From Phellopilus nigrolimitatus (taxonomy: Eukaryota; Basidiomycota; Agaricomycetes; Hymenochaetales; Hymenochaetaceae), in contig JAJOHG010000174.1 in NCBI GenBank assembly GCA_021029095.1, positions 1 through 52,635 of the forward strand: 52,635 nucleotides of DNA, written 5' to 3'. Below the pieces are notes generated by a model, which was given only the letters and a program-made list of their open reading frames with translations, made no database searches and was not told the DNA's origin. Positions 3,831-37,710 of this stretch are shown here, one piece after another. Positions within the stretch are counted from its first letter, which is position 1. Every line of letters begins with the position of its first letter. Both the position numbers and the translations under genes were made by a program.

Positions 3831-3831
3831 T

Positions 3832-6724: not shown

Positions 6725-6755
<31 letters not shown>

Positions 6756-6907: not shown

Positions 6908-7249
6908 AAAAAAAAAGCTTTCCGGCCGCGAGAAAATATTGCTGTAACACAAGATATCTCTCTTTGGAAAAACATAACAAAACCTGTACTCATGACTAAA
7001 TGCTTTCTGACTTATGCTATCGCATACAATCTCTGCACTTCGGGAACCATCACTGGTTACTCTGATTTCTCGATGACTAGGCTCGCTGGACCTTATTCGT
7101 TTTTCGACCAACTGTATCTGCCTCGTCGCCCTTATCGTTGGCCTTACGCAGGATGTAATGAATGACAAGAATTACAAGTCCGGGAACTTCAATGTTCACA
7201 GTCCCGTTCTTATTTCAACGTGCCCAAAAGAACTAGCTGCTGGAGTATA

Positions 7250-9810: not shown

Positions 9811-9999
9811 GTTTTGAATGTCATATAATAGAGACTTCAGCATGCGAACAAATTTCACGAGGAGTTTTTGATAAATTTCAATTTAAAGAAAAGGCATAAT
9901 TGTTTTTTCAGACATCCGGAAAAGCGAAGGCTTCTAATAATACAAGGTTCCGGAGTTTCTGTTCGACACGTCCTTTCATTATAGGCCATCCACCAAAAT

Positions 10000-13298: not shown

Positions 13299-13622
13299 GG
13301 TTGGAAACGGAGCGGACTCTGTTGAGGACGCGGGGTGCTTGAGACGCGCGTATGAGGGATAAAGCGGCCTTGAAGTCCATCGTTGTCTTTATATGCACCA
13401 GCGCAGCCCGGGGGAAGGGGGACATGTGCGCGAGCGCGTCCTTTGTAGAGTCCTTTGGGACGCGATCTGCTTCCCCGAAAAGGAAACAATGTCTGTGGTA
13501 AGCAGCCAGGGTCCGACCACGAGGCTCGCGACTCGCCAATCCCAGCCGCGCTGGTGAGTTTCTTTTGCCTCCGTCCCGGAACACCGTACAAAGGACTTCC
13601 GCTGGGCAACTACCGCATCGCA

Positions 13623-13653
<31 letters not shown>

Positions 13654-14978
13654 GAGAGAGAGAGAAACATTCTGAGTGCCAGTTCCTACCAGTGTGATTG
13701 ATGTGGAGTATTTTTAATCCATACACGATGTCTATATCTATACAGCACCGAATGGATAACCAAATATTATCTGACTTCTCTGCTCGCTAAATCATATCGT
13801 ACGACGACTCGACGATCCATTGTCTATTGAGTACACATAGGACACAGCCACAGCAGCCGGCAGAAAGGGGGCTGATCTCGCCAATCTTCTTTCCCTACCC
13901 AACCTTAAATTAGGGGCGGACGGATGGGAGACCACCTGCCTTCCTTTGAGCACAGAGTTCTGTTTCAGAGATAGTTAAAATTTCCTTCATTTTTTACTCG
14001 CTGTGAACGCTAATATTGTGCTGATTGCCTTTATCCTTAACGCACCAGAAGGCTAAATATATTAGAAAGGGTGCGTCATGTTCAAACTATTGCATGCGGT
14101 TTAGGTTGGGCTCCGGACCGTGCGCTGCTGGTTTTGTGTTTCGTTCATCCAATATGCTAGATCTCATGTATTACGAGGCTTTGACGGCGAAGATGTAGTG
14201 ATTTGCATTTCTTTTCCATTGTGTACAAATTACAAGGCAGGTCGAGTCCTATGTGGAGTTTTGACTCTCGTATAGCTGGATCCGAGGAGACAATTGAAAT
14301 TTTGTGAGAAACAGGAATATCGGCCCATTGAAGTCTTAGACAAAGGCCTTCAAGTGCAGATAAACCTCTTCCTATGTGTTCTCTCGAAGAATAGATCGAT
14401 CCGATGATCAATCTACAAGATCTTTTATCTCATCTTTTGATTTGGGCGCGTCAGCGCGAGAGACTGGTGGATTCATTGTGGAAGGCCGGACCAAGGGTCA
14501 ACGTTAATGAGGCGACCTCTCTCTGTCTCGGAACCTTTCTACGGGACTCGGAAGACATCGTAGAATTGATTTTGTAATCAGAGAAAAATTCTTATCTTGC
14601 GGGTTTCAAGAAACAGAAATATACATGCCTGGCTGACGTATTTATGCCTAGGACTACGCATACGTCGGTCAAGATCCTACAAGCTCATTTCTCTAAGATA
14701 TCACAGAAACCGTTTCACAGATTGATTTGTGGCTAGATTACCGCTTGTGTCATTCAGGCGCGGACGGCATGCAAAATCAGCATTACCGGGAGGACGACTA
14801 GCTTAATGACGGAAAGGAGAAAAACACAGAGCGTGACGGCGCATTCGCGCATGGTCGACGATGCAAGCATTAGGCATACAAATGCAACGGTGAAGCTGTA
14901 ATTCGCAGCAGTTATGGGGCTGAATTTATGATTGAAATCAGCATATATTCAGAATCATACATAACTCCACGTCTACAC
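13299..14978. other. Long intergenic region
   Basis: About 1.7 kb with no convincing gene on either strand. It contains the polypyrimidine/GA microsatellite at 13625-13666, close upstream of the zinc-finger gene, where it may be a promoter element. Confidence 0.45.
13625..13666 (+). repeat. Polypyrimidine (CTTTT)n plus (GA)n tract
   Basis: A run of T-rich pentamers is followed directly by seven GA units. On the minus strand this is an AAAAG/TC tract about 330 nt upstream of the zinc-finger gene start. Confidence 0.85.
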
Positions 14979-16001
14979 TTACCCGCCGTCACCTGGAAGC
15001 GCCGGTACGAGAGAAGATATCTTCCAGGCCACGCTTCCAAAACCGGTGCTGACACTCGTCACGGAATACGAAGCCACTCTAATGCTCTTCGTAAACATGC
15101 GAGGGGTCTTTATTCTCAGCACTTCCCCGTGCTCGTCTTGCAAGATCATAAATGAACCTAGTTTCAAGCAACCCTTTTGTAAATCAACACATAGTGGAAA
15201 TTTACCAGGTGAATTTACCAGAAAGAGGCCCAATAGCGATAGTATTGACAGGCTTGCCGACGGAAAATAAAGACTGCTTTTTCTCGACCAAGTCAAGCTT
15301 ATCTTGTAATGGTGTGGGGTCGGTCTTGGCGGTATAAGTCTGGACTGCTTCGACGGCCTTTGCATTTTGCGTGCTGTCCTGGACCTCAGTTGTTTTCTTC
15401 AATTTCCTTGATAGCACTGAAGATCGAATTTGAATCATTGTTAGCAAGACAAAACCACAATAATACTGGACTTACTGTGCGCAAAGCCTTTTCCGACCAC
15501 GCGAAAGGGTCGTGCGCCATTTGAACACGCCACCTTAGCGCTGGAAGCGGTACTCTGGGAAACCGAGCCCCACCAGGTAGACCATGCTATAGTCACTGTA
15601 AGAACAATGAACGGTAGAGAGTTTCTCGGAGAACTCACTGCCATCGCCTCCTCGAGCGTGGACTGAAGGTCAAGAATCGTTAGCCGATTTTTGTGTCAAT
15701 CAGAATGATAGGACTTACTTTCAAGACGCACTAGTGCCTTCTTAAGCGAGTTGACCTCCCACTCCCACTTCTGTCCTGAAACGCACTCAAATGTCACCTT
15801 ATGTTGGTCGAGCTCGCGCCGCGTCTCTGGCGCAAGGCGCATCAGAATAAAGTCAATTGGTTTGACTTTGCGGTGTTTTGTGAGGCGGTACGCCTCATCG
15901 ACGGAGGCCAGCCACTTCGCGACGGAGAGTTTACCGGTGAGCGCATACGGCTCGATGGCGACCGGAACGGGGGTACTGGGGCGGGACTGGCGTGCGCCCA
16001 T
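14979..16001 (-). CDS. Gag-like-module protein with unrelated C-terminal domain
   Basis: Five exons, 16001-15719, 15662-15639, 15595-15476, 15416-15219 and 15157-14979, give 267 aa; the second exon is only 24 nt. Residues about 20-95 align with the N-terminal module of the array genes at 20-24 kb: a Trp-containing helix start (VAKWLASVDEAYRL), PIDFILMRLAPETRRELD, a W-x-W pair and LKKALVRLE. Both end at a phase-1 intron directly after a Glu codon (GAA A|GTAAGT). I read the module as Gag/capsid-like. The rest has no ISG12 domain: it is Ser/Lys-rich and ends in SFMILQDEHGEVLRIKTP..SIRVASYSVTSVSTGFGS, which looks like a small beta-rich domain. Function unknown. The exon sum is a multiple of three. 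Confidence 0.6.
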
Positions 16002-16843
16002 TTTTGCTCGAAGGGGAGCCCAATAAGAGCGATGTTGTTCTTTGGAGTGGGCTTGCTGAGAAGTTTGCTGGGGAGATAAACGACCTATGCGTCTGGATTT
16101 ATACCATTCAGAACGAAAAATAACACCTTAGGTTGTTTCGTAAATGAAACGCATATAGACATACTATTGAGGACCATTCCCATCAACTCACTGGAATATA
16201 TAGATGCGAAGAAACGGCCTAAGAGACCGTATACTAAGACCCATCGCAAAGGCCTTGACTGCACTGCCTAGCCTGTAAAAATGGCCCTGGGTCTATTGGG
16301 CAGAGAAGCCTTAGTCAATTCACAATCGGAACACAAGTAGAGGTAAAACGTTTCCCAAGTTAATAAAAAGTACTTATTTCAGGAAAACTTTGATTCGATT
16401 GAGTCGCTAAAATTTCACTAGTAGCCCTAGATGTTTCCTGCAAAGTCTGCATCACAGCATAGTAGTCTTCCGAACATATTACCCGGAAAAGGCTCGTACA
16501 AGTCCACAGGGTTGTTCAGACCTTTATAAGCTCCTCCCTGGAAGAAGGCAGACCAAAAAATATGCTTTACCCTGCTCCCCATCGGTATAAACAAATGATT
16601 GCAGTCTTTCCAGGAGGGCGAAGCTGACCAATTAGAAGCGCGCGGCGATCATAACCCAATTCAGAATGAAAACAAATAAACGACTAACGATACATAGGAC
16701 CCAGTGCGACATGCAATAAGATAGAGATCAGACAGAAAGTCATCGAAAACAAGAGTGCACAGGACAGCGATGAAGCCAGAGATGAAAGAAAGAGGAGATG
16801 TAGAAGCGAGCCCAACTAACAGAAGAGGCAGTCAGGGGGATGA
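16002..16843. other. Intergenic region
   Basis: AT-rich sequence without a recognisable gene between two minus-strand genes. Confidence 0.45.
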
Positions 16844-18883
16844 CTAGGCATCGACGCCCACGCCCCGCAGACCTGCCCACCCATTCGCGCCGAATATGTC
16901 GAGTCCATAACCATCGAGCAGGTTGAGTGCGCTTGACGCAGATGTCGAAGATGACGCCGCATCTGTAAGCGACGGCCACGCAGCCTCTGATCCAGCTACA
17001 GAACCGGGGTTGGCATCGCCCGTATCGCCCCCTTCATCATCCTCGTCATCCGCACCGCTTGCGATATCCGCAAGCTGCGCAGCAAGTAAAGCCAGGCTTC
17101 CCTGGAGCGCAGCGCGGCTGGAAGCCGGGTCCTGCGACACGCTCGACGTAGTCTCCGGTGCTGCCGTATCTGGGTCCGAATTGGCGCCCACGTTGGACAT
17201 GGCATCTTCGACGCGACTCGCCGCTTGCGCAGACCCTTTTGCGGGTGGGAGAAGTGCCGCCATCGGTGGCGAATTTTGCCCATTTTTGGTTTTGTCCGCT
17301 GTTGAAGCCGACGCGAACGCCCCGATAGAGATGTCGCCTGCAAAAATGGGCGGGGGGAAAGGACTCGCGTTCTTCGGGATCGGGAGCGGAGATATACGTG
17401 TAGTCTTGTCCGTAATGGTATTAGCATCGGTGGTGGCATTGTCTGGTGGCCGATGAATGGCCTCAGTCGCCGGTTCCCCCACATCGACATCTACCCTTGC
17501 CTCTGACGACGCTTCGCCCGCCTTCGGCTGCTTGAGGAGCGAGGTTAGGTTGAGGGCCTGCAAAATGCTCTGCGCTGCCTCCCATGCGTCGCGGTGGCTC
17601 TCCGCGTCCTGCTCGCTCCCGTCAACAGGCAAACCCTCCGCAGGTGGCTGTAGATGCTGCGGGCCTGATGCAGGCGGGGGCGGAGTCTCAGATTGGGACT
17701 TAAGGGTCTGCGTCGCGTGGTGATACGGCCATTGGTAAGATGGGTACGTATGTGTGGTTGCCGTAGGATGAGAGGAGCTACTTGGGTTTGTCGTAGCTTG
17801 GGCATAGGATTGTGGGCGGCGAGTCGTCCGCTTCGACGTCTACATAACGTTTAGAAACATGAAGAACATGCAGCAGCAATAGTAGATACGTACATTTCCG
17901 CCCTCCCATGCCGTATTCAGTCTGTACTTCCCGTCCTTGCTCTTCTCAAACCTCCCACGTTTGAATGCCTTTTGGAGCGCTTGGCTTGCGCTAGGGCGGA
18001 AATTAGCCTGCAGTGGGTAGTGCGCGGCCATCCACTGAAACAGAAGCTTCGGCGCAGTCCCGTCAGGGTCGTTGTACTCCGCAAGTGCCTGCACAAGCAT
18101 CACTTCGTAGGAAGGGAGACTGTTTTCCTCTTCAGATTTCTGCGCGGGCTTTACGGCAGGAGAGTAAGGAGTTGCTCCTTGAGTGTTGGACGTCGCGGAG
18201 TAGGGATACGGATATGGCTGGTGGTTCTGGTTTGAGGAGTGAGGATATGGATAGCCTTGTGGGTAGGCGTATTGCGAATAGGAATGGGACAGCTGGTTTT
18301 GCGACGACGTGGAAGACAACGTAGAAGTATAAGACGACGATGCTGCCTGATACGACGTTGTTGTCGAAGTCATGGGTGGTGTTGGCAGTGCAGAGGACGC
18401 TGTCTCATTGGATACCTTCGCCAGCGCCGGAGATGTAGCAGTCGGCGTCGGCATCGGCGCCAACGCCGGTGAGTGGGCCTGCTGAGATGACTGGACATGT
18501 GGTGGGGCAGCTGGCGGCTCTTCTGCATCCGTCGTAGGTGAGGCATTCCTCTGTGTGTTCGCAGGATCCGGTGGATCGGGAGTTTTGCGCAAGTGGCCGG
18601 CAATACTCACGCCCGACTTCGCGATTGTGGCCATGGCCGTACTGAGGATGGCAGCTTGCATGTTTTGCGGCCATATCTCATTCCTGATGCTTAGAGGAAC
18701 GTGCTCGTCGAGCTTCAAGGCAAGCTCGACAACCTGCTCCGGTGGTAAGAGATTTAACCACACTCGTTTGAATGTCCTGCCGCCATCTTCGGTGCCATCG
18801 ACGGCGGGCACGATGGACGTGCCTGTCGAATAGGACATTAGTCTCGCACAATTAGAGGTAGACATTCGACGAACCAGCTGCAT
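16844..18883 (-). CDS. Nuclear protein with an H15/winged-helix-like domain
   Basis: Two exons, 18883-17894 and 17839-16844, give 661 aa; an in-frame ATG six codons downstream is an alternative start. An N-terminal conserved-looking block (VWLNLLPPEQVVELALKLDE) is followed by a long Ser/Thr/Pro/Tyr-rich disordered region with PYPYS repeats. Residues about 257-323 resemble the globular H15 domain of linker histones: SYEVMLVQALAEYND ... ASQALQKAFKRGRFEKSKDGKYRLN. The second exon starts TSKRTTRRPQ and is disordered, with Ala-rich and acidic (DDEDDEGGD) stretches. A chromatin or transcription role is likely by analogy. The H15 match is by eye. Confidence 0.65.
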
Positions 18884-19179
18884 TATTCTGACCGAAGAAT
18901 GTGTTGAATTAAAGGCGTGGATTGATGAAGCTGAATGAGCTCACCGTCGCATCCGAGTCCATCGCGCACACATGCGAAAAACTGTGCAGTTGCAAAGTCG
19001 TCGGGACAAACTGGCGGCATCAAACTTTGTACACTTTTGTATTCGTGGGAACCAACTCTTTTACTTACACCACGACATGTCTACCGAGACAGCGACTTCC
19101 AAATGCTCCCCATCGTTTTCAAGGTCGCTGGCAGAGGACAGTAACCTTACATTTGAATTCTGGTAAAGCGATTTACAGA
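18884..19179. other. Intergenic region left of the array
   Basis: Short divergent region between the H15 gene and the tandem array; nothing recognised in it. Confidence 0.4.
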
Positions 19180-19446
19180 ACTCTTCATCTTGGAGCTTGT
19201 GCTTAATTTTGCTGGCCGCGGTCCATCTATCTAAGAAGCTGCCATGCTAACGGAACAGGACTTCCTGCTGGAGTTGCCGTTCGTACTTTCCAAATGAACG
19301 TTTTCACCCCTGCACGTTGCACTGGATCCCGCACTTGACGCTTGTCAAACTTAGACTTACGAACCGATACGCTTATAACTGGCATGCATCTTCTCATATC
19401 TGTCCACGAGCCTTTTTTGGAATCTCATAGAGCTACTTGGTTGAAT

Positions 19447-19795
19447 ATGACAACCATTTCAAGTTTCGACGACCAAGACAATCCATAACCTGAATCGGCG
19501 AATTACAAAAAAAAAGTATCTGAGAACAACCGTTCGCAGCACGCTAGAGGAGTCCCTCCTCAGATCCGCTAAAGACGCTGTAGCCATCGCTGTAGCATGC
19601 GTAGCTGACTCGCGCTATTTGTCGGCAGACTCGGTCTTATCGGATGCTATGCAGCTGGTCCTATCGCAGGTTCATCCACTGTGTCCCAAGCACATCTCGC
19701 TGCTAGTTAACAATATTTGGCGATAACGCCTCGTTTGTCGTTGGAGGAGTTTGAACCATCTGCCATGTTGATCGATGAGTTGCTTAAAATTGCGT
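19447..19795 (+). pseudogene. Decayed Gag-like/ISG12 gene, unit A
   Basis: The start region (ATGACAACCATTTCAAGTTT, 19447-) resembles the start of unit D, but most of the Gag-like exon is deleted. The ISG12 segment LFVGRLGLIG..AAGPIAG is readable only after a frame change near 19614, and the middle of the last exon is missing. The C-terminal remnant FEPSAMLIDELLKIA and its TAG are still visible at about 19751-19798. Upstream, a diverged copy of the unit promoter is recognisable at about 19185-19340. Confidence 0.75.
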
Positions 19796-20324
19796 AGCTT
19801 CTTGGTCAGCTGATATTTTGTTTCTTCGGGGAAGACACAAAGGTTTAGGGTTGCCCGAGGCGTTTGTCTCTATATTTGTAGCAGATAACAGTGTTGTTCT
19901 CTTCGTGGATCATGGGCAATTCAACGACCGGACTTCGGTATACACAAGCTTGTACGTAGTTCTGCTGATTTTGCTGACTGCATCGACTGCGGTCCATTTA
20001 CCTCAGAAGCTTCCATGGGAATAGGACGCGCCTTTGAATGTCTGCTCTACCATATCTGTCTTTCTCCGTCCTCAAATGAATGTTCACACCCATGCACGTT
20101 TCAACCGAACTCTACTCATTCGCTGAAATCACAATGGATTTAGGAAGGAGTCTGGTCTAAGCTTCGCTTCGGTAGAGTGCTCGTGACGACCCACGAGACT
20201 CTATCTATGGGATGGATAAAGCCAGTGTTCCTGTCTTGTGGTCGAGGGTTTACTTAAGGCACCCACCTCCTAGTACCTGTCATTCACTTGCTGTCGTCCC
20301 TCACACAAATACTCGATCGAAATT

Positions 20325-20938
20325 ATGGCGGACATTCCGAATTTCAGCGGCCAAGGCAAAGTCGACGATTGGATTGGCGCGATTGATCTACATTTCGAGC
20401 AGAACGGAATACCTGAGAACGAACGACTGGATTTCGCGATGGCGCACCTCATCGCTCCAGCTCGAGATTACGTCGACAGTCTCGCCAATTGTCTGGAGTC
20501 CAAATCTGGAAGAACCTGGGTATGGACGTGGATGAAACTCAAGGCTGCCCTTCGGGGAATTGAAAGTAAGTCGAGGGTGCTAGCTTGCTTCCCCCAAAAT
20601 GCTGAGCGTGCACTACAGAGGACATCTCCTCTTGTTCTACAACTGATTCACACGAGCAAACTCTCAAAAAAGCCGTCCCAAACTTACTCGTTGGTGGAGC
20701 CAGTTTATTTGTTGGCGGAATCACTGCTGCTTTGTTTCCTCCCTTAGGTTGGTATTTACTTCATTCTAGGCTCAACTTGCTACTAGCTAATGGGATCTAA
20801 GCCGTTTTTTGTTTTTTTGGCGCGGGGAAACTCGGGCAAGGCGTGGTGCAGGTGTGCTCCGTTGCATGGAAATCTCATCGAGAGGGTTTCGAACCGTCTA
20901 GCCAGCTGGTCGAGGAACTGCTCAGTCGTTTTATATAA
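20325..20938 (+). CDS. Gag-like/ISG12 fusion, unit B (shortened membrane domain)
   Basis: Three exons, 20325-20565, 20619-20747 and 20802-20938, give 168 aa. Exon 1 (241 nt, exactly as in C and D) encodes the Gag-like module: FSGQGKVDDWIGAIDLHFE, IPENERLDFAMAHLIAP and WVWTWMKLKAALRGIE. Exon 2 uses an earlier acceptor (CACTACAG) than C and D because their AACAAG acceptor reads AGCAAA here. It adds KDISSCSTTDSHEQTLKK and a hydrophobic hairpin (LLVGGASLFVGGITAALFPPL). The last exon has lost the core QSVFYGGAVQAG..CQSAAMGG segment but stays in frame and keeps a C-terminus, GFEPSSQLVEELLSRFI, matching the siblings. It may be a degenerate but open copy, or a functional variant. Membrane location is inferred. 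Confidence 0.6.
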
Positions 20939-21639
20939 GTATTTTGATGGACTAGTTTTATTTGAGTACGGATCGGCAATGTATTTTCATTCAGAGCTAA
21001 AGAAAATGATTGGGGTAGTGCTGCACCTCGGCGAACAGATCATGCTGTGATTGCCTTATGCAAGTAGAATTTCTGAACAAATTCTCTGCATTCCGTGCGG
21101 TTCAAGGTCTAATTGAAAATAAATTAAAATAATAAAATAATATTAAATTAAATTAGAATTAATGACATGGGCGAGTAAGAGAGGCGCGGTGTCGCCTCGT
21201 CTAATGCGATGAAGTTCATGTCGGATGAGAACGAGTTCGACGCGCTTGACATCTGCGAAGCGGGCGGGATCGACAGATGGTATCGAAGAAGTGCAAATCC
21301 TCGACCCGGAAATACAGATCTGCAGTCCGGGTACCAACGGGTTCCAGGGACTCGTGGTATGCACCCACTCACACATTGATCTCTTAACTGCGAGGAGGCA
21401 GTGATGTCTCTGCGCGACACGCGGAGCGCCGGATGACTAGGTTTCTGGCACCCGGGCAAAGTGCTCGTGCACTACGCCCCATGTAGACGAAGCATGAGGT
21501 AAATGTCGACACTTTTGGATATTGTAGTCATCCGCTGGCGAAGATAAGGTGCTGCTGGTCTGACAGGATGCCGCCAACAAGCATCTTCACTTACTGCTAG
21601 GGCATACCACGAGTCTGGGTAGAACCGGGACCAGACGCG
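20939..21639. other. Unique spacer between units B and C
   Basis: No gene recognised. It includes an AT-only tract at about 21118-21162 and a GC-richer block at 21170-21480 that differs in composition from the array. Confidence 0.4.
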
Positions 21640-21794
21640 AAGATTTGGGATTGTATACTACGAGGCGTCTGGTTTTACTTTTGTAACAGATAACAGTGGT
21701 GTTCTCTTTGTGGACAGAAGATTTGTGGTTGTACGAGTTGTCTGGTTTTATTTTTGCAACAGATGACACTGATGTTCTTTCTCTTCGTGGACAG
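21640..21794 (+). repeat. Promoter tandem duplication (2 x 77-78 bp), unit C
   Basis: Two head-to-tail copies begin AAGATTTG and end TGGACAG: 21640-21717 and 21718-21794. Unit B has one copy (about 19838-19912). Confidence 0.75.
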
Positions 21795-22216
21795 ATCATG
21801 GCGAACAACCATACTTCGGTATACACGATCCGCAAAACTTGTCATCCTGGAGCTTAGTTCTGCTAATTTTGCTGACTGCATCGACTGCGGTCCATTTACC
21901 TCAGAAGCTTTCGTGGGAATAGGACGTGCCTTTGAATGTCTGCTCTACTATATCTGTCTTTCTCCGTCCTCAAATGAATGTTCACACCCATGCACGTTTC
22001 AACCGAACTCTACTCGTTCCCTGGAATCACAATGGATTTAGGGAGGAGTCTGGTCTAAGCTTCGTAGAGTGCTCGTGACGACCCACGAGACTCTATCTAT
22101 GAGATGGATGAAGCCGGTGTTCCTCTCTTGCGGTCGAGGGTTTACTCAAGGCACCCACCTCTTTGCACCTGTCATCCGCATCCTGTCGTCCCTCACACAA
22201 ATATTTGATCGAAATT

Positions 22217-23007
22217 ATGGCAGACATTCCCGTCTTCAGCGGCCAAGGCAGTGTCAATGGTTGGATCGGCGCGCTTGAGGGGCACTTTGTGCAGAACGGG
22301 GTACCCGAGAACGAGCGATTGGACCTCGCGATGGGGCACCTGGTCGCTCCAGCTCGAAGTTGCATCGATCGTCTTGCCGGTCTTTTGGAGGCCATCACTG
22401 AAGAAAACTGGAATTGGACGTGGATGAGATTGAGGGTTGCCCTTCAGGGAATCGACGGTAAGTTGGCGGCGCTAGCTTGTTTTCCCCAAATGCTGAGTAT
22501 GCACCACAGGGCAGTTTGACAGATTATGTAGGCCGAATCACGTACATTGTCCTATGACTGACTCACATGAACAAGTCAAAGAATTAATCGTCAAATGCGC
22601 TAAGACAACTGCAGCCATCAGCGCAGCATGTATCGCCGGCCCCGCATTATTTGTTGGTGGACTCAGTCTTATCGGGTTTTCCGCGGTTGGACCTGTCGCA
22701 GGTCAGTATCTACTGCGTTTTAAGTACATTTTACCTAACTAATGCAATTTAAGGTTCGTTTGCCGCGGCCGCCCAATCAGTATTCTACGGGGGCGCGGTC
22801 CAGGCGGGCTCCGCATTTGCTTTCTGCCAGTCAGCGGCCATGGGTGGGTCGGCTCTCGTAGCTGTAGCTGAGGCCAGCGCTGTAGGGACTGCCGCCGTGG
22901 CTACTATGAAGGAGCTTGCGAAGACACCTCCCTCGAGCACTTGGGCGGATGGCCCGGGGTTCAGGCCATCTGCCGGATTGATCAATGCGATACTTGAAGT
23001 TGCGTAG
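22217..23007 (+). CDS. Gag-like/ISG12 fusion, unit C
   Basis: Three exons, 22217-22457, 22576-22701 and 22754-23007, give 206 aa. Residues 1-80 are the Gag-like module (FSGQGSVNGWIGALEGHF, PENERLDLAMGHLVAPAR, NWTWMRLRVALQGID). The ISG12 domain follows: AACIAGPALFVGGLSLIGFS, AVGPVAG (intron here), SFAAAAQSVFYGGAVQAG and CQSAAMGG, then an Ala-rich helix and the conserved end PSAGLINAILEVA. The intron inside the ISG12 domain matches the solo gene at 7.4 kb in position and phase. The first intron could instead end at CACCACAG (22509), which is also in frame and would insert about 22 residues. The likely role is a membrane-inserting protein with an oligomerising N-terminus, by inference. Confidence 0.75.
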
Positions 23008-23048
23008 CTCCTTAATTCGTCAATCATTTGTTTCCTCGTGCGAGATAC

Positions 23049-23198
23049 GAAGACTTAAAATTGTACGAGGCGTCTGGTTCTACCTTTGTAACAGATAACA
23101 GTGGTGTTCTGTTCGTGAACTGAAGATTTGGGGTTGTACGAGAAGTCCGGGTTTACTTTTGTAATAGATAACAATGATTTTCTCTCTTCGTGGACAGG
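23049..23198 (+). repeat. Promoter tandem duplication, unit D
   Basis: The same roughly 75-bp duplication as in unit C: copies at about 23049-23121 and 23122-23198. Confidence 0.7.
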
Positions 23199-23634
23199 TC
23201 GTGGCAATCCAACAATCGGACTTCGGTATACACGATCCGCAAACCTCGTCATCCTGGAGCTTGTATTAGTTCTGCTGATTTTGTTGACTGCGTCGACTGC
23301 GATCTATTTACCTCAGAAGCTTCCATGGGAATAGGACGCGCCTTTGAATGTCTGCTCTACTATTTCCGTCCTCAAATGAATGTTCGCACCCATGCACATT
23401 TCAACCGAATTCTACTCATTCCCTGTCTCAAGTAACCTACATGCTGAGATCACAATAGATTTAGGGAGGAGTCTGGTATAAGCTTCGCTTCGGTAGAGTG
23501 CTCGTCACGAGGCACGAGACTCTATCTATGGGGGTGGATAAGTCGGTATTCCGCTCTTACGGTTGAGAAGTACTTAAGGCACCCACCTGTCATCCACTTC
23601 CTGTCGTCCCTCACAGAGATATTTGATCGAAATT

Positions 23635-24444
23635 ATGGCAGCTATTTCAGACTTCAACGGCCGAGGCAAAGTCAACGTCTGGATCGGCGCGCTCGAAAGG
23701 CATTTTGCGCAGAACAGGATACCTGAGAACGAGCGATTGGAGCTCGCGATGGCGCACCTGATCGCTCCTGTTCGAGGATGTATCAGCAGTCTTGCCGATT
23801 TTCTGGAGGTCATCTCTGAAAAACGATGGATTTGGACATGGATGAGACTGAAGGTTGCCCTTCGGGGAATCGAAGGTAAGTCGGTGGTGTTAATTCATTT
23901 CCACAAAAATGCTGAACATGCACTACAGTGCAGTTTGACAGACAATGTAGGCTGGATCACATCATTATTCTATAGCTGACCGACTCACTCACATGAACAA
24001 GTTTCAGAAGCTATCGCCAGAGCAGCTAAGAGAGCAGCTAAGACAGCTACAATCGCCACCGTAGCATTTGTCGCCGGCCCCGCATTATTTGTTGGTGGAC
24101 TCGCTTGCATTGGGTTTTCTGCGGTTGGACCTGTCGCAGGTCAGTATCTATTGCATTTTAAGCACATTTTGCTGTCAACTAATGTGATTTAAGGCTCGAT
24201 TGCCGCAACCGCCCAATCAGTATTCTACGGGGGCGCGGTCCAGGCGGGCTCCGCGTTTGCTTTCTGCCAGTCTGCGGCCATGGGTGGGTCTGCTGCCCTC
24301 GCAGCTGTAGGTGGTACCAGCGCTACTGCCGCCTTAGCTACTATGAATGCACTTGAAAATGCACCTCCCTCGGGAACTTGGAAGGATGGTATGAATTTCA
24401 CGCCGTCTACCAGGTTGATTAACGAGCTACTTGAAGTTGCGTAG
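23635..24444 (+). CDS. Gag-like/ISG12 fusion, unit D
   Basis: Three exons, 23635-23875, 24002-24139 and 24194-24444, give 209 aa. The N-terminal module reads FNGRGKVNVWIGALERHFAQ, IPENERLELAMAHLIAPVR and WIWTWMRLKVALRGIE. After the phase-1 intron the second exon starts with a basic helix (EAIARAAKRAAKTA) and then VAFVAGPALFVGGLACIGFS. The third exon has SIAATAQSVFYGGAVQAGSA, CQSAAMGG and the shared C-terminus PSTRLINELLEVA. The earlier acceptor usable in B and C leads to a stop here, so the AACAAG acceptor (ending 24001) is required. ATG 23635 has the same context (AAATTATGGCAG) as the siblings. Confidence 0.75.
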
Positions 24445-24515
24445 CTTCTTAATAAGTTAATCATTTGTTTTCTCGTGCGAAAGAAAATTTACAATTGTAA
24501 GAGGCGTCTGATTTT

Positions 24516-25199
24516 TGTTTACTGCTGCACTTGTCTTTGGTTCTATTTTCTTTTGTTTTGGAGATTGATTTCTTAACAGTTGCTCGGCAGTTTGAGGTCG
24601 ACTTGGTAGTGTCCAGATTTACAGATACTGTACCATAAAGTAGGATTATTAGTCAAGTTCAACAGAGATCTGAATTCAACCATGTACACCTTTTGTGAGC
24701 GTTCTGATTTCCCGGGAAGCACGTATGTACATGGTACTTTCCACGGAAAGAAATGATATGGCTTCTTTAACACAACACAAACACGCTTTCTGCAGGTGTC
24801 ACGACTGATCCTACTCGTTCAAGTTGTGGACACGAGAAGGAGTAAAGTTCGACCTCAAGGTTGCACAGTTCGGGTCTGCTATGAGACGAGCTGAGTATTG
24901 AAATTCCGGGCTAGCGCAACGGTCTCCTGAGCACAACATTCTGCAAGTTCATTTCGAAGAGAAAAATAGTCAGATGCTCTTCAAGTTCAAATTGCCGAAG
25001 CCCCACTTTCACGTGACATAAACCACGTGATAATATCTGACGCGTTTGTGACAGTTGTGTCACTCTCGTCGTGACTAGAGGCTGACCCGGAGCCTCTCCT
25101 CTCTTCTTTTTATTTCTTCATTCTCTTCCCTTTCTTTAGCAGAGACACGACTGCGATACCCAAGCCGCGACACTGCACCACCACAACTCCTTGATCACA
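24516..25199. other. Intergenic region upstream of the large membrane-protein gene
   Basis: No gene seen. Two CACGTG boxes lie at 25010-25015 and 25024-25029, followed by a pyrimidine-rich leader. Confidence 0.5.
25010..25029. promoter_or_regulatory. Paired CACGTG (E-box) sites
   Basis: Two palindromic CACGTG hexamers lie 14 bp apart start to start, about 175 nt before the start codon of the large membrane-protein gene. CACGTG is the core site of fungal bHLH factors such as Cbf1/Pho4-type proteins; binding here is inferred. Confidence 0.45.
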
Positions 25200-28100
25200 A
25201 TGAACCCCTTCTTTATTCTTACCCAAATCTTCTTTTCGCTCGTTGCTTTCTCTACATCGGATTACTCGCTGTACGTCACACATAACCTCCACGTCCTGAA
25301 TGAGGTGTATGTGACTCCTGCGGCCGAGAATCTTCATGCTGCTTGCCGTACTATTGAAGGGTACAGCCAGTCTATCGTTCACTATCTCAAAGACCTGTCA
25401 GCCTCTTCCTCATCGCACCCTACCGCGCCCACCTCCGCCGGAAGCAACGACTCCACCCCTAATAGCACGGAAACTGAGGCCAAGAGTAATGATGAGCAGC
25501 TTGTGACCAATGATATTATGATCTTTACCACTCTAGAACCAAGGAATACGCGCTGTGGTGTTATAAGGGCCGAAATCGACATTTCTGAGGCGGCTGCCAG
25601 CCCTGGCAAACCCTTTTTTTCCGTACGGAAAAAAGGCCGTCTGACCACGTTCCGATACGAATGCAGAACCGTGCCTTCAGCTCCATCACCATTCCCTTTC
25701 CACGCTCGCGATGTCAGCTCTGATGCTATACTCGTTGACGCACATCCGGTCGAAGTCCCAGAAACACCGACGCTTCTTCCTTCAATAATCGCGACCCAGG
25801 GCGCTCAACACATCACTGAGGGCCAACCCGTCATTACTAGTCCTCCGCTCGCTTTTCAGGCAATGCCCGTTCGGCTTGCTGCACCCGCACCGCATATTAT
25901 TATCGCCATTGCTGTTTTCCTTGCGTGCTTACTGACCCTTGCGGTTAGTCTCAATTCTGAATTCAACTACCTCCACTCTAAAACCGCTAACATTTGCTGT
26001 ATTTCTGCTCGAATCAGGTCCACAGAAAATCGCGTCTCGCGAAAGCGAGAGAGAATGTGCCTCTCCTTCCTTTCACGGTATGGTTGCCGGTCTTTTCTCA
26101 TAAGTCTCCCCCATTAATCTGTCTCCGCCTGTTGTATCATTGCTAGACTCCTTCCGCATCTGTCGTTAGTCTCGCAGCCATCGCCGAACTCGGTGGTTGG
26201 CGAGGACTTGCCAAGGATGTGTCCGTAAACACGGGTCGCCTCGATGATCAAATTGAACAACCGCTCCAAAACAGGCACTGGCCATGGGCTGGAGCATTGT
26301 CTCCGCCTTTTTACCAGCCTGCCGTTGTTCAGATTGAGCCTGGTGATATCGCGTTTATGAACGATTCGGTGCGAAATTTTTTAAAAAAGCTTTGCGTAGC
26401 GTGCTGATCCAACTGAATAATGAAGGAAACTGAGTCTTCTTTGAAATCTCCCGAGCTCGAATATGTCTTGGCCAATCTGGGTGAAGACAACGAGAACGAA
26501 AGCTCTTTGACGCACATTGCTGAGATTGACACGGTACGCACATTTTTCTTTGAATTTACTTCATCTGGCTAACGGCTTTCGACGTTGGCCAAATTCTGTA
26601 CACAGGACAGCTGCACCGTTATAAAAAGCGAGCCTATGTGCGCACACGCGACTGCAAGCGACAGCAAACGATCGAATGACGAGTCGAACGAGTCGACGCT
26701 GCGTGACGAATTCGCGCGTCGACGTTGCAATGAGGTCAAGCAGCTCTGCGAGTATCAGTTTGACTTCGATATTCACGGGAACGGGTATGCTCGCACAAAC
26801 AAGCCAATGCGCACATTCGTCGCGTCGACAGCTTCGACAGCGGCAATTTTGATGGACGCGACATTGACATCTCCGGGCCCGGCACCTGCATTGGGATTGA
26901 CGTCGGCATCGCCATCGGTGTTGAGATTTTCCCGCTCATCCTCGAGCGGCAAGGCAAAACGTGCACGGGCATTAAAGCGGGCCTTCGAACCCGCAAGGGC
27001 TTTCTTGCGCGAGTTAGAGACTCGTCCGCGCAAGCCAGTGACGCTCGTGCGTTTTGATAGTAAGATAAGCACCAAGCAGAAAGCGCACAAATCGAGTTTC
27101 GACAGCGACGTGACATTAAAGTGCTTATTCAACCCCATGAGATCATTCTTGAACGAATTGGAAGTGCGCAAGCAGCGTACGCCCACGCGCGCTGTTGTGG
27201 GTGCGGTCGTTAACCATGCAGTGCGCAGTAGTCTATTTTTCATTTCAAATTGTTCCTGACTACTGACTGCGAACTTTAGTGTGAACTATTGGAGGCACCC
27301 GTTTCGGCATCGCTGCCGTCTTTCCTACCCGTGGAAGGCCTTCGCGCTCGCACCCGCGTGAAGCGTAAACCGCCCCCGATTTATTCACCAGACCTTTCTG
27401 TCCATATCGTCGAGCCGCATGACGAATGCCTGAAGATCATGGACTCACATGAAGAGGACCGGACCGTCCCGATGGCCAGCATGGATTCGTTCACCGGAGG
27501 TGACAGTGAGGTCTTGGGGTCAGCTCGTGCGTTAACGGGGCTCGAACCTTGGCGGGCACATGTGATTGGACTCATCAAGGAATTATCCGAAGGCATGCAA
27601 GAAGACAACGTCATCGAGAAAATAGACACACTCAACACGGACCTCTCTATTTCTGCTACGATCGGAGAGGCGCCTCTCGCAGACAACTTACAAGGGGACG
27701 AAGTTATCGAGAGAATAGACACGTTCATCGCGGACTTCTCTACCTCTGCTACGATCGGTGAGGTGTCCTTCCTCGCAGACGACGTCCGGAAGCCTGCGCG
27801 ATTCAGAGTGAAGTCGCCTGAAGCGAACACCGACTTCGCTGCAGACCTTTCAGTCACGGCCGTGATCGGGGATACGAGCTTCCTTGACGACAACGTCGAG
27901 AGGAGTCCTCGCCAAAGGGCGGCCAACGATAGCGGAGTAATCAAGTCAAAGCTCAGCGCAGCTCGTGCACGCGTGCGTGCGGAGCGCCTGACGTTCTTGG
28001 GCACGGAAAATTCAGGCGGTAATCAGCTCGACAGATCTGCGCCGAACGCAAACCTCTTGGCCGTCGCTTCGGTCGGTTCAGGGTCTTTCTTTGCGGATGT

Positions 28101-31082
28101 TGACAACGTTCTAGCGGTTCCTGCGAAAGTACGTCCGCTGCTGCAGCTTGAGAGCTGCGCGCGGAACTGGAGCAGTGAGCGAGAGCGACGAGACGTGGTG
28201 GTAGTGTCGGGTGGTCTTGATGCATCTGGAAGTGCGAGTGGAAGTGCTGTCAACTGCTCTACATCGGCCGCTCGCTCCACTATCTCGAACATCTCCGTCG
28301 TGACTATTAACAAGGCTTTCAAGGACGACAACTCTGAATGCGCCCGAAAGAAAGCTCTGACTCGGGCTCGAACTCGGACTCGGAGTGCGCCGGCTCGCGC
28401 GGAGAACCCTGCGGAACACACAGACATTTTTTATGCTGGAAATAGCACCTTAACCGGTTCCATGTTCGCGATGACAAGTGCGCATATCGGCAGCTCAGCA
28501 ATTTCGCAAACACTGGAATCAAGCATTGTAGATTACAATGAAAGCCTCGCCCTACATGGTGCTGGAGGTACCACTGTCGGCGCTAACGCTTCCAGCTCAA
28601 GGCCTGAGCTGACTGGACTCGAAGTCTGTACGACTAACGGCAGTAACGACAACTCTATTCTTGTGACCTCTGGCTCGCAAGATGGTACAAACTTCTTGGA
28701 GTGGCATCTGCCTGCTACGGATGATTGGAGTATTTTTTCTGAAGGCGTTGAATTTGGTCTCTGCGTAGAATCGAATGAGGACGATGTCGATACTTCGCGG
28801 ACTTCTTGGCTAATTCCTGGTTCCATCGAAAATTCTTGTATCGGCTTTCCGGTCGACGAGAGACTTTTGGAGGATGAGAAGGTTGAGGATACAGAGGCTT
28901 TGTCTACGACTGCGGCTCTGGGACTGGTTTCTGATCTGGTACTTGCTAAGAAGAGCTTGGACAACGAGTGCTCAAATGTGGACGTGGAATCTGGATCTGA
29001 TGCTGCAAACGTGGAAAACAAGCAAGGGGGTCACGAAGAGACCTCGATTTTGGATGTCTGCGCAAATGGTGAAGAGATTGGGGGTTCTGTGTCTGATGCT
29101 AGCTCTCGCTCTTGTATTAGTTCTCTTCTGGCTTCTGCCGACGCTGGCATTGAAAACGACGGGCTTGTTCAGAAACAAGAACTGGGGGTTGATACGAACG
29201 TACTTTCATCATCGAACTTCTGGTCCACTGACGCGCTTCTTGATGACACTCTAGATGGTCTATACAGGGTCTCTGGCAACCTAGACTGCGTTGAAGTTGA
29301 GGTAGACGCGCTCGAAGGCACTCTGGGGGAAATCGAAGAGGTGCTGATGCAACTCATGGATGCGCTCGTTGAAGACGTGGTTGCACAGGCCACCTCAGTC
29401 TACCAAGGCAGGGAAGAGCCGCCAAAAACCTTTGGAGAGGCATCGACGTCAACTTCAAGTCTTATGCGAATGGTGATGTATGAAGACGATTTTACGACTG
29501 TGGATTCTCCTGTTTGTGGAGATCTGATAGAGCTTACGCCGACTTTCTCTTTTGAAATGAAAACGACGGAAGGTGACCTTATCGAACTTGAGGAGGATCT
29601 AGCCAATGCGCCGACGTACTTGAACGCCTCGACGTCGACTTCAGCACTCGAACCAGAACGACCTGTTAGTCGGATGTTTATCGACGCATCAACGTCTATC
29701 ATGGCTCTCGCTGACGATGAAGAGGAATCTGTCCGAAGGTTTATCGACACCTCGACTTCGACTATGGGTCTGACTGAGGTGACTATCGGAGGCGTATCTG
29801 ATCTCAGAGAATATCTGGATGCTTCGACTTCAATTTCGACTTTTGAGCAAACTCAGAATGATTCAAATGCGGATCTATCGAGCGACGCGGATTCAGGCTT
29901 GGACATAGCAGCGGCTACTCTTTTACCTACTTCGAACAGCGATGAAGACTTTGACCTTTCGAGATCTGCGGGCCTATACTGCTCTACTGGGTATTCAGCA
30001 ATGGGTTCGTCTACTGGAGACCACGCAACAGCGCAGCTTCTCGAAGATTCTTTACCTATGCCATCGTTGATATTACCTCTCAAAGGTGATGGCAAGTCGC
30101 GGACCCCAGACTTCGTGAACGGTCTTTCGGCTAGCGACGATCTAGTTGATTCTTCTGGTGCTTCGCTTCAAGAGGAACAAGATGCAATTGTGTCCAACAA
30201 GAGCCTAGCTGCACTGAAATATTGCTCGAATGTTCCAGATGCTATTTCTACAGGCGAGTTTCCGTATATCAGATAGCCTACGAGATGCTGAAGCTAACAT
30301 CTCCGCGCGTAGATGGTGAGGAAGTATCGCCGACTTCGGTGGGTCTTGGCACAAGTTCTGGTGAGGAAGTCAATGAACCGTCGACGCGAATCGAGTCTCA
30401 GACGCTGGTCGATTCGCCCAACGACCTTTTTTCAGTTGCTCTCCAACCAGTTAATGATGGGCAGAAGACTGATTTCCGTCCATCCCAAGCACCAACAGCG
30501 ACGTCAGCGGCTCTAAAGCCTCCTCCTGCAGGTGGGCGAGTCCTGGACATGGTCGCGTTTTTCCAACAGCGTGAGCAGATCTTAACCTCGTCGTCTCATG
30601 GTGCGCGCGCTTCGTCTGTGAGGGCACGTATCGAGACGGCCTCTTCACCGTTGACGGCGGTCGATTCACCTGGGCCGTCCGGTCCAGGATCATCGCGGAT
30701 GACGGCTACGCCCGATCGGGGAACGTTTGTGAACTTACGACAACACCTCGAGACGCCTAGATTGAATTTGGGTTTAAGCCACGAGGGGACGCCAGGTTTG
30801 GACTTTGATACGCCCGGGCCGTCGGCGCTGCGGTCGGTGGAGACACCAGCACCGAGCACGCCCTGCAATGACTTGCCAGTCCCAAGCACGTTTGCTTTTT
30901 ACTACGGTGACGGGAAGGTTATCAGACCTAGAAACTGCAGGAATATGACAGAAGAAGTGGCAGAGGCTAGGACACTGGGTAAGAACGCGATTGAGCTGTT
31001 CCCGGAGGTGGCTCAGCGCATTCTCCACAAAGTGAAAGCGAAGCATGTGGTTAATGGCACTGGACGTGACGCTTATACATAA
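25200..31082 (+). CDS. Very large single-pass membrane protein, family unknown
   Basis: Eight exons, 25200-25943, 26018-26077, 26147-26368, 26426-26533, 26606-27220, 27280-30253, 30313-31082 (seven junction-checked blocks), give about 1830 aa. The last intron has a GC donor (CAG|GCGAGT). The N-terminus has a signal-like hydrophobic stretch (FFILTQIFFSLVAF), then a Ser/Thr-rich region. A transmembrane helix, HIIIAIAVFLACLLTLA, lies at about 230-248 and is followed by basic residues (HRKSRLAKAR), predicting a lumenal N-terminus of about 210 residues and a cytosolic tail near 1570 residues. The tail is acidic and Ser/Thr-rich with two internal repeat families and ends in a more conserved-looking segment (FAFYYGDGKVIRPRNCRNM). 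I recognise no enzymatic domain. Every intron except the last is phase 0, which supports the model. Confidence 0.65.
27605..27895 (+). repeat. Internal coding repeats (DLSxSATIGE type)
   Basis: Three units in the large membrane protein share D(L/F)S(I/T/V)(S/T)A(T/V)IG(E/D)...L(A)D(N/D). The first two (27605-27688 and 27698-27783) are about 86 nt long with matching flanks (VIE(K/R)IDT). The third is shorter (27838-27895). Confidence 0.75.
29435..29850 (+). repeat. Internal coding repeats (ASTSTSxL type)
   Basis: Five copies of a (L/I)(N/D)(A/T)STS(T/I)xxL motif occur every 20-60 codons (EASTSTSSL, NASTSTSALE, DASTSIMALA, DTSTSTMGLT, DASTSISTFE), separated by acidic linkers. The pattern looks like recurrent Ser/Thr phosphorylation or docking sites. 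Confidence 0.7.
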
Positions 31083-31431
31083 TCTGTTCATTATAATTCA
31101 TATATCTACTTTGTATTACTTTCTTCTACGGCTCTTATATAAGTTTATATATTTCTTTCCCTCAGATTTTTTTCGTGAGAAACAGTAGCCAAGCTTGAAG
31201 ATGACCGACGCGATGGGTGGATAAACAGCATCAAAGAACGCGTGACGCAGCGTTACACAACGCGTCGCTCGTCCGGCCCAATTCGGAATGGAAATTCTCT
31301 GCCACCGTGGCCTGGTCGCGGATCGTCCCTTGTCTCTTACCTTCAACATCCTCTCCGTCCTCGCAGTGCGGCGTGACCATCTTTGATCCGTATTCCTCTA
31401 CCTCTACCCTATTCGCTGTTGACGGTAGGCA
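31083..31431. other. Intergenic region before RIF1
   Basis: 3' flank of the large membrane-protein gene and presumed promoter and leader of RIF1. Nothing else recognised. Confidence 0.4.
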
Positions 31432-34400
31432 ATGCAACGTATGTCGTCGACACTCCCCACACCACCTAGACCGACAGTGAGCCAGGCTGACAAGGAGAAT
31501 CGCATGGCGACACCGCGCAAGAGCATCGAATGGGCGGTACACAAGGAGGTTTTCACTTTTTCCCCGGCAGTGACACATACGGTGAACGTGTCCAACTCTT
31601 CCCCCGGACCACGCAAATCGATCCTGAAGCCACAGCGCCCGCTGCAGCCTTTTCCCGAGGAAAAGAAACGCGATATCACGCCTCTTCCCGACGATGCGCT
31701 CTCAGATGCTCACTTTCTCGAGTACCCGGTCTCGATGATTACCGCGGAGAGCTCGACACTGCGCGAACTTACCGAGGCGTACTCGATTCTTGCGGCACGC
31801 ATCCGCTCGTCCGTGCCTCAACATTTCTGGTCATATTCGACGCGCGATCCACGCCATCCTTTATTCAACCCTATGAGACAGCACGCAGACGCGTTGGCAG
31901 GTGCAATTGTACGCGACCTCGGACGCGTTTTTGCCGACCCTTTCCAGCTTCCAACACCTACTCCACCTAGCCACACTCCTGAACATGGCGAGGCTGGAAG
32001 TACGAGTCTGCCTACTCCGCAAGAGACGCCAACGAAGAAGGGGGGGATGACAGAGGAACAGGTCAAATATGCTCGGGATTTAAGCACGGTTACAAGCGCG
32101 ACTATCAAATTTCTCATCCTCGCCTTCCAGGTGCCGACTATTTATAATGTTTTCAGCAGTGAGTTCCTCTCGATGTTTTTTTCCCGTTTGATCCACTTGT
32201 CTCTGATTAAAGTTGCCCTTCAGAGAAACAGCTCGACTCTATCTTGACTGCTGTATTGGCTATACCTCTCGCAGAGTCATTGCGTTCACCCAGTGCGCGA
32301 AAGATCTGCGGATTCGCTATTACTTTTCTGCAGTCGCAAAGACTTCCCGAAGTGACTCTTCGCATGGGCAGGGATAGGATGGCATTTGCGCTTCGACGTG
32401 CTATGGATGGCGAGCTTGGCAGGGAAGGCAAAAAAGGCGCTACGGGTGAAGCTTTGCGGGTATGCTTCTACGGATTCCTTTAGCTAAAGCCCGAACTAAT
32501 AAAATTATAGGCAATACACGACCTATCCCTCTTTAAGCCTGAAATCTTCATCCCGGGATTCGAGGCGCACCTTTCTTCCGTCCTTGAGAATCTTCTCGCT
32601 CCGTCACACGCACTACGTGTGCAAGCGGCACATGCCTTGGGAGGTTTCGTGCAAGGAATCACACAGCCTGGAGTCGACTCTGACGATCTTCTCCGTGATA
32701 TCTCGCCTCGTGTCGCGCACTTCTTCTCTCTCAATAGCCCGTCAAGCATTTGCCGGACGTTGGGGGCAGCCCTTCGAACTACTGAACCGGCACACCACGG
32801 CCAAGGTCCTTTCTGGGCTATATCTGTCTTGACGAGTTTCATAATTCTATCCGGGCCCGCGCTGCTGAAAGACCGCCAGCTATTTATGAACTTCCGCGCG
32901 ACTATTGACTTCGGACTAAATTCTAAGAAGAAAGTTGTTCGCGCTGCCACGTCTACGCTCTGGGGCCCGCTCATTTGGGTGTGGCAAAAGTGGCGTGGCT
33001 CGGTCAGCGTCAGCAAAAAGGACGAAGAAGGCGAAGACGATGCCGCTGAGCGTGAGGAGGTCAAGGCATACTTTTCGCAGATGCTCAGGTCAACGACTCA
33101 TCTGCCAATTGGCATATCCTTTATTGGCGCACTCCTCGGCGGCAGCCATTCAACATGTCAGAGACAAGACCTGCTTATGGCTTTCTACAATCTGGGTAGT
33201 TCTGCGAAACAAGGGGGAGACTCGACGCCCAGGGCACTCGAGCTTCTTGATCGTCTCATTAACTCGCGGGAAGACGGCGAGTTCTATACTGGCTGGTCGA
33301 ACAGGTTCCTCACAAAGCTCATCCCCTCACCCCTGCTCTCAGTCTCCCCTGGGTTACTGACAACGGAGATGGGCGGACCGGCCCTTGGCCAGCTGGTTGA
33401 GAGCATAATGGCACATCAACCAAACTACGACGATGTGCGCCCGCTCGCGGACGAGGAGCGTCGCCTGTCAAGTGTGTGGACGCGCGCAAAGGATGCATGG
33501 ATAATGTGCCTTGAGCAACTCGAGATGTCAGAGGGCGAACCAGTTTCGGTAAGTATTTCCGATTGTTGAATTTGATTAATAATCTCATCTTATATGATAG
33601 GAGCTTTTCCTCGATATCTGGACGGGACTGATTCGTATGGGATTGACTGGCCGAGGTACGTGGCCTTCTGGAAACGAGTCATAAGTAAACTCGTCTCAAT
33701 TTATCTAACATTCAGATGAGCCAACTGCCATCAACATTTTCGCCGAGCAATGCTCGAAAGTCCTGACCTCCATACTTAGCAATAAAGCAGTCGACCTCCG
33801 AGAAGTGCCCGACTATCGTGAAGTCAAAGCTCCATCTTCTGACTCCGCCCCTGTGAAGAACGACGCCGGGAAGAGCGAGATTGCAGATGATGGTGCGTGC
33901 TCGGCAGCGAACATGCGTCTCAAGCTTGCCCTCGTGCGTGCGCTTTGGGCCGCTGCGATGGGAGCTCTCCCAGCGTCTTCATTAAGATGGACAGTCAAGC
34001 CAATGCTGCGCTTACTTGTTCAGAAGCATCATGAGCTTGCTCCACCGGCCGAGTCTGACGGAGTCGTGGAGGACGAGGCAAGCGCGGCAGCGTTGAGCGA
34101 GTGGGCGCAATTATGTGCGCAGGTCGCTGCAGTTGGTTCGACTGAAATGACGCCAGCCATATGGGGTCGAAAATGGGAGTGGGACGAGACTATGAGAGCT
34201 CGTGCATGGCGTGGGTATGCACGCGGGTGGGCTGAGGATTCGCGAGGTTCGTGGAAAGGCGCGGCTATCGTGCTTGGCTTGCCGTTCAGGTATATTTCTT
34301 CACTGATCTCTGTATTGATCCACAGCGACTAACCGGTTTTCATCTCCAGGAATGATCAACCATGGGATATGTCGGATGCAGATTTGTCCGCATGGAACAG

Positions 34401-37581: not shown

Positions 37582-37710
37582 CTTCAAATTGGTTCTCAAG
37601 CTAAGCTTAGGACTTCTTGGAACTTGTTGAGAGGTTGTGAGGCGGGCTGTTAGCGGGGCTGTTGCACTCGATGGACTCGGAATCCAGAAGAATGTGCGGG
37701 ATTTCATGCG

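What the first reader, a model, noticed from the sequence alone, without database searches (positions are those of the whole stretch)
20325..24444. Tandem family fusing a Gag/capsid-like module to an ISG12 membrane domain
Seen: three open genes share an N-terminal exon of exactly 241 nt encoding F(S/N)G.G.V..WIGA...F, IPENERL..AM.HL.AP.R and W.WTWM.LK.AL.GI(E/D), then a phase-1 intron, then a Gly/Ala hydrophobic domain with the ISG12 pattern. Known: ISG12/IFI6-16 proteins are small membrane proteins linked to apoptosis and innate immunity in animals; the N-terminal pattern resembles the capsid part of Gag in Ty3-type retroelements, and domesticated Gag can assemble. Inference: an oligomerising domain driving a membrane-active domain, possibly a cell-death or allorecognition effector. 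A Death-fold-like or other helical adaptor is the main alternative for the N-terminus.
Basis: partly seen in the sequence, partly recalled or inferred. Interest (0 to 1): 0.92.

Follow-up and report, generated by a model that had tools for sequence, protein, structure and literature searches.

The report
Capsid-lobe domain fused to ISG12 domain
Two tandem genes of a wood-decay fungus are predicted to join an 80-residue domain, which would fold like one lobe of a retrotransposon capsid protein, to an ISG12-type domain that likely sits in membranes; related fungi carry the same pairing, so a transposon capsid piece has likely been reused by the host.

Summary
The observation mostly holds. Three tandem copies share a 241-nt first exon with a phase-1 GT donor; two (22217-23007, 23635-24444) continue, by predicted splicing, into a Pfam-recognised ISG12 domain; the first (20325-20938) is degenerate there. 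The same fusion occurs in Coniferiporia, Sanghuangporus, Fomitiporia and Mycena and in three metagenomic proteins. The N-module also heads a widespread Agaricomycete protein family with another hydrophobic C-terminus, and its member here has a phase-1 intron at the same place. Two AlphaFold models (of relatives, sharing some input rows) give a confident helical module whose Foldseek matches are nearly all Gag capsid lobes (47 of 50 shown; 10 of 10), though at weak E-values. Sequence support is modest but concordant: the Arc N-lobe is the best PDB match (E 0.087), and the first half of the module aligns with this genome's LTR Gags above shuffled controls; no Pfam gag model matches. Exon 1 is under purifying selection (omega 0.33-0.55). 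The window is likely the second haplotype of another scaffold; the array differs between haplotypes. The mechanism, lobe assembly clustering ISG12 at membranes, is inferred; cell death is untested.

The parts
20325..20565 (+). copy 1, exon 1 (241 nt): capsid-lobe-like N-module
   Evidence: 62% and 64% aa identity with copies 2 and 3
20619..20938 (+). copy 1, downstream exons (20619-20747, 20802-20938): degenerate hydrophobic part, no ISG12 match
   Evidence: reproduces public model P0120; 0 Pfam families
22217..22457 (+). copy 2, exon 1 (241 nt, phase-1 donor): capsid-lobe-like N-module
   Evidence: fold by the homologue P0001, 74% identical
22510..22527 (+). copy 2, probable 18-nt micro-exon (present in the public protein of the counterpart, P0001)
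   Evidence: P0001 sequence
22576..22701 (+). copy 2, ISG12 exon a
22754..23007 (+). copy 2, ISG12 exon b and C-terminal tail (W.DG..F.PS..LI), stop included
23635..23875 (+). copy 3, exon 1 (241 nt, phase-1 donor): capsid-lobe-like N-module
23929..23946 (+). copy 3, probable 18-nt micro-exon
24002..24139 (+). copy 3, ISG12 exon a
24194..24444 (+). copy 3, ISG12 exon b and C-terminal tail, stop included
19500..19800 (+). degenerate remnant of a further copy (ISG12-like stretch), longer in the other haplotype (about L004:481-1005)
   Evidence: by eye

Best explanation
Two of these three genes are predicted to encode a likely host-domesticated Gag capsid lobe (predicted four-helix CA fold) in front of an ISG12/Ifi-6-16 domain, a likely membrane part, and the lobe would bring several such domains, or a partner with the same fold, together at a membrane. 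Shown: open frames in the two-part order, recurrence of the pairing in other fungi, purifying selection on the first exon, and the ISG12 match. Predicted: splicing and the capsid fold. Inferred: descent from an LTR-retrotransposon Gag, insertion of the Gly/Ala segments in a membrane, and clustering through the lobe as the switch. A role in innate immunity, programmed cell death or self/non-self recognition would fit the tandem, copy-variable, conversion-prone array but is untested. The module ends at a phase-1 intron in two families of this genome, so fusion by exon shuffling is the likely route.
Confidence: 0.48

Rival explanations
1. The capsid lobe is a decoy or sensor for LTR-retrotransposon Gag: it co-assembles with newly made capsids and brings them to, or triggers, the ISG12 domain, so the protein is a restriction factor against retroelements.
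For: The genome has 84 listed places over the PF03732 cut-off, most in long open frames. A lone lobe is the form of known Gag-derived restriction factors: Ty1 p22 and Drt2 (CA-CTD) appear among the fold matches as titled in the PDB, and RTL8 antagonises PEG10 particles (PMC11684626, title and abstract start in a listing).
Against: Sequence similarity to the resident Gags is remote, so direct co-assembly is not obvious. No binding data.
Confidence: 0.18
2. The N-module is an unrelated small helical adaptor that resembles a capsid lobe by convergence; the fusion is a fungal adaptor plus membrane anchor with no retroelement ancestry.
Against: Near-uniform capsid hits for two models, co-linear alignment with the Arc N-lobe and with own Gags at the capsid N-lobe start, with reversed, shuffled and unrelated-helical controls lower.
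Confidence: 0.22
3. An ordinary fungal membrane protein: the module targets or dimerises a housekeeping ISG12-type protein, for instance at mitochondria, with no role in defence or cell death.
For: The second family occurs widely in Agaricomycetes, for example Coprinopsis, Schizophyllum and Trametes, which fits a housekeeping role for module plus hydrophobic tail. Fungal ISG12 domains also occur beside RING (P0176), adaptin-like (P0207) and, just below cut-off, kinase-like (P0146) stretches, so ISG12 may be a general membrane part.
Against: The ISG12 fusion itself is tandem, copy-variable between two haplotypes and shows conversion-like mosaicism in exon 1, which fits conflict-type genes better.
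Confidence: 0.3
4. Decaying gene copies whose joined frames have no product.
For: Copy 1 has lost the ISG12 domain, the counterpart h2 has a stop in exon 1 and further remnants exist.
Against: Two open copies here and one in the other haplotype, purifying selection on exon 1, fusions in other genera.
Confidence: 0.05

Closest known systems
Arc / dArc, PEG10, PNMA2 (domesticated Ty3-type Gag capsid proteins of animals)
   Same: Predicted CA-lobe fold; best PDB sequence hit is the Arc N-lobe (4x3h, E 0.087); dARC1 heads the VIA list for both models, within 1 Z unit of Copia, and of PEG10 for the second.
   Different: One lobe only, no CA-CTD or nucleocapsid part; fused to an ISG12 domain; in fungi; capsid formation unknown.
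ISG12 / IFI27 / IFI6 (FAM14 family, Pfam PF06140)
   Same: Copies 2 and 3 pass the Pfam cut-off.
   Different: Animal members are small proteins without a capsid-like domain (recalled; abstract starts on some in listing); the proteins here carry an N-terminal module and a C-terminal tail.
Gag fused to PEX14 in fungi (Wang and Han 2021, known here only through a passage in PMC10799480)
   Same: A Gag sequence fused to a host gene in fungi with an intron acquired.
   Different: Other host gene, said to be Bel-Pao derived; not compared here.
Ty1 p22 and Drt2 restriction factors
   Same: Single Gag capsid lobes; among the fold matches.
   Different: They are CA-CTD pieces (PDB titles); close to their target and without a membrane domain (recalled).
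Fungal HeLo-domain and gasdermin cell-death effectors (PMC12881547, passages)
   Same: Proposed logic: regulated assembly of a membrane-active domain.
   Different: Different domains; that review does not contain the terms gag, ISG12 or 6-16.

Membership tests
LTR-retrotransposon Gag capsid / domesticated Gag | CA fold (four-helix bundle lobe) | tested here: inconclusive
   Predicted models only; matches nearly all capsid lobes but at weak E and middling Z, so it points to met without proving it; Ty3 CA-NTD as four-helix bundle from PMC6525542 passages
LTR-retrotransposon Gag capsid / domesticated Gag | significant sequence relation to bona fide Gag | tested here: inconclusive
   hhalign to own Gags E 9.5e-5 for a single comparison, above controls, first half only; Arc N-lobe E 0.087; no Pfam gag match
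complete Gag | second capsid lobe (CA-CTD) and nucleocapsid downstream | tested here: not met
   An intron and the ISG12 domain follow exon 1; so it is at most a single-lobe derivative, not a Gag
domesticated Gag | assembly into capsids or oligomers | not testable with these tools
ISG12 / Ifi-6-16 (PF06140) | Pfam model above gathering cut-off | tested here: met
   copy 2 31.7 bits, copy 3 31.0 bits, cut-off 29.1; copy 1 has no match (P0120)
ISG12 / Ifi-6-16 (PF06140) | membrane insertion of the Gly/Ala hydrophobic segments | tested here: inconclusive
   Kyte-Doolittle 19-residue windows of 1.4 or more over residues 84-129 and 143-174 of copy 2 and 92-133 of copy 3, but also 42-60 inside the module of copy 3; no experiment; low pLDDT there
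Death-fold adaptor | Death-superfamily fold | tested here: inconclusive
   no Death-fold entry among listed matches, which does not exclude it
fungal allorecognition (het) locus | incompatibility reaction between unlike alleles | not testable with these tools
   only two haplotypes compared

The most novel reading that the evidence does not exclude
A transposon capsid lobe has become the assembly switch of a fungal membrane executioner: capsid-type packing of the lobe, by itself or on meeting a retroelement capsid, gathers ISG12 domains in a membrane and kills or arrests the cell, and reshuffling of lobe variants in a tandem array sets self/non-self specificity.
Probability: 0.17. Interest if true: 0.93.

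Novelty: new variant of a known kind. Interest (0 to 1): 0.74.

Why it matters
Domesticated Gag genes are best known in animals (recalled). A capsid lobe found widely in Agaricomycetes in front of hydrophobic C-termini, and fused to ISG12 in several lineages, would be an old and little-noticed case of capsid reuse in fungi, and would link transposon-derived assembly folds to ISG12, a family studied in animal antiviral immunity. It makes testable whether capsid packing can act as a signalling switch, and what ISG12 domains do outside animals.

Tried and rejected
Pfam scans of exon-1 translations, of 69 members of the second family and of 10 further proteins: no gag family near its cut-off. PDB sequence search with the second family's full alignment: two chance hits. 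BFVD viral structures: noise, Gag fragment at row 7. Death-fold, HeLo and gasdermin: no entry in the listed fold matches; this is absence from lists, not exclusion. C-terminus of the second family as a remote ISG12: hhalign 17.7 against a maximum of 17.2 in 50 shuffles, so not established. Positive selection on exon 1: not seen in pairwise omega; the high exon-1 divergence between haplotypes (80.1% identity against 97.5% in intron 1, though intron 2, 52 bases, has 86.5%) is better explained by a conversion-like tract, since h1 is closer to h2 than to g2 only at exon-1 positions 101-220 of the windows scanned. Own-genome search by the module alignment was not accepted and single-protein versions did not complete, so the number of module genes in this genome is known only from one query (6 matches, 5 in the array and its counterpart, 1 at C533). 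Literature: ten searches listed no paper whose title or abstract start describes this fusion; some listings were cut (15 of 149; 12 of 15; 12 of 19) and only the held open library was covered. The splice model without micro-exon was kept as an alternative; both read in frame. Rows left out before counts: of 9 Gag stretches fetched, 6 were used (one was truncated, two were near-duplicates); 69 of the 107 proteins were aligned, 13 of those used again.
Full report
WHAT IS THERE. The window equals one whole contig (G000:C84, 52,635 bases). Public protein names retrieved with matching contig lengths (P0001 on 723,276 bases, P0120 on 52,635 bases) identify the genome as Phellopilus nigrolimitatus, a wood-decay basidiomycete of the Hymenochaetales (recalled, and in passages and listings). 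Three tandem copies lie at 20325-20938, 22217-23007 and 23635-24444. Each begins with a 241-nt exon ending before GTAAGT in phase 1. Copies 2 and 3 splice in frame into an Ifi-6-16 (ISG12) domain that passes Pfam's cut-off. Copy 1 has an open exon 1 but a degenerate remainder: its public model P0120 has no Pfam match. A probable 18-nt micro-exon separates exon 1 from the ISG12 exons; with it every intron is 48-55 nt, and the counterpart's public protein P0001 contains it. Splicing rests on prediction and public models; I saw no transcript.

THE SECOND HAPLOTYPE. The window matches C68:150-209 kb at 95.9-97.7% identity over 687-19744 and 36920-52635, and at 93.4% over 21717-36724, the block that holds copies 2 and 3, so C84 is best read as the alternative haplotype. 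There the array has one intact fusion (h1 = P0001) and one copy with a stop in exon 1 (h2), against three exon-1 copies here. Between g2 and h1 the identity is 92.0% upstream, 80.1% in exon 1, 97.5% in intron 1, 90.5% and 88.2% in the ISG12 exons, 86.5% in the short intron 2, and 97.2% at 25203-25900 downstream. In exon 1 the affinity of h1 switches from g2 to h2 over positions 101-220 and back in the intron: a conversion-like mosaic. With five sequences this is suggestive only.

SELECTION. Exon 1 pairwise omega is 0.33-0.55 in 6 of 6 pairs among g1, g2, g3, h1; one-sided Fisher p on rounded counts is below 0.05 in 5 of 6 and 0.066 in the sixth; the pairs are not independent. The ISG12 exons give omega 0.73-1.29 in three pairs, so they are not clearly constrained among these copies, although the domain is highly alike in Coniferiporia.

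RELATIVES. A search with copy 2 listed six proteins: P0001, P0002 (Coniferiporia weirii, 50% identity over the full length), P0003 (public model at the counterpart locus, without the module), P0004 (metagenomic, ISG12, without the module) and two weak ascomycete proteins. A profile search added Sanghuangporus weigelae, S. sanghuang, S. vaninii and Fomitiporia mediterranea (P0114-P0117) among 110 proteins with E<=1; only the 7,998 candidates sharing most words were scored. An HMM of 9 Hymenochaetales N-modules run on those 110 proteins finds the module in 11: seven Hymenochaetales proteins, all of them represented in the HMM, and 4 of the other 103, namely three metagenomic proteins (P0118, P0119, P0122) and P0165 of Mycena indigotica (E 9e-4 or better; the next protein is at 0.025). 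With the other modules in the HMM, left-out E-values are 9.8e-17, 9.6e-7, 4.8e-12 and 8.8e-8 for these four. An HMM of the second family finds 10 of the 11, P0119 falling at 0.046. Since the 110 were retrieved with a profile that contains the module, 11 of 110 is no estimate of its frequency among fungal ISG12 proteins. Other fungal ISG12 proteins carry other neighbours: RING in P0176, adaptin-like in P0207, part of a kinase model in P0146 just below cut-off.

A SECOND FAMILY WITH THE SAME MODULE. A weak own-genome match at C533 (E 0.022) turned out to be P0007, one of 107 proteins with E<=1, the named ones from Agaricomycetes; 69 were aligned, and not every one of the 107 was checked for the module. 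Its N-terminus is homologous to the window module (hhalign 65.3; 50 shuffles max 16.1), a phase-1 intron follows at the equivalent place, and after a variable linker comes a different hydrophobic segment whose relation to ISG12 is not established. Domain end and exon end coincide in both families, which favours exon shuffling.

MECHANISM. Shown: a recurrent pairing of module and ISG12. Inferred: ISG12 as the membrane part, the lobe as the part that assembles or recruits. I commit to assembly-driven clustering at a membrane, with a conflict-type role somewhat more likely than not for the ISG12 form because of its tandem, haplotype-variable nature. Main rivals: a decoy against LTR elements, of which 84 Gag places are listed here; a housekeeping membrane protein; convergence.

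KNOWN WORK. A fungal screen for transposon co-option (PMC10799480, passages) mentions a Gag-PEX14 fusion and does not contain the word interferon; a fungal NLR effector survey (PMC9815663) contains none of gag, ISG12, 6-16, interferon, retrotrans; a fungal cell-death review (PMC12881547) lacks gag, ISG12, 6-16 and interferon. Ten literature searches listed no title or abstract start describing this fusion. Wang and Han 2021 could not be read, so prior mention there is not excluded.

Noticed in passing
L012:1441-2341 (G000:C533) and further proteins: A widespread Agaricomycete family of unknown function pairs the same capsid-lobe-like module with a variable linker and a conserved hydrophobic C-terminus; none of the 25 Pfam families shown for 69 members covers it well.
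   Followed up: partly
window 19700-24500 against C68:174-178 kb: The tandem array differs between two haplotypes in copy number and shows a conversion-like mosaic in exon 1, with exon 1 more divergent than intron 1.
   Followed up: partly
P0176, P0207, P0146: Fungal ISG12 domains sit beside varied domains (RING, adaptin-like, partial kinase-like), as if ISG12 were a general membrane part in fungi.
   Followed up: partly
P0001 residues 181-212; ends of window copies 2 and 3: The C-terminal tail with W.DG..F.PS..LI recurs in the Hymenochaetales fusions and in P0122 and P0004 and is predicted with pLDDT 87-97; it might dock on the capsid-like lobe.
   Followed up: no
G000, 84 places: 84 listed LTR-retrotransposon Gag matches over the Pfam cut-off, most in frames of about 300 codons or more; at least six types by eye among the stretches read.
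   Followed up: partly
window 3832-5031 (-), 5981-6730 (+), 31400-36200 (+): Open frames by eye like a MYND-finger protein, a pyridoxamine-phosphate-oxidase-like protein and a large HEAT-like nuclear protein lie around the array; labels recalled, not tested.
   Followed up: no
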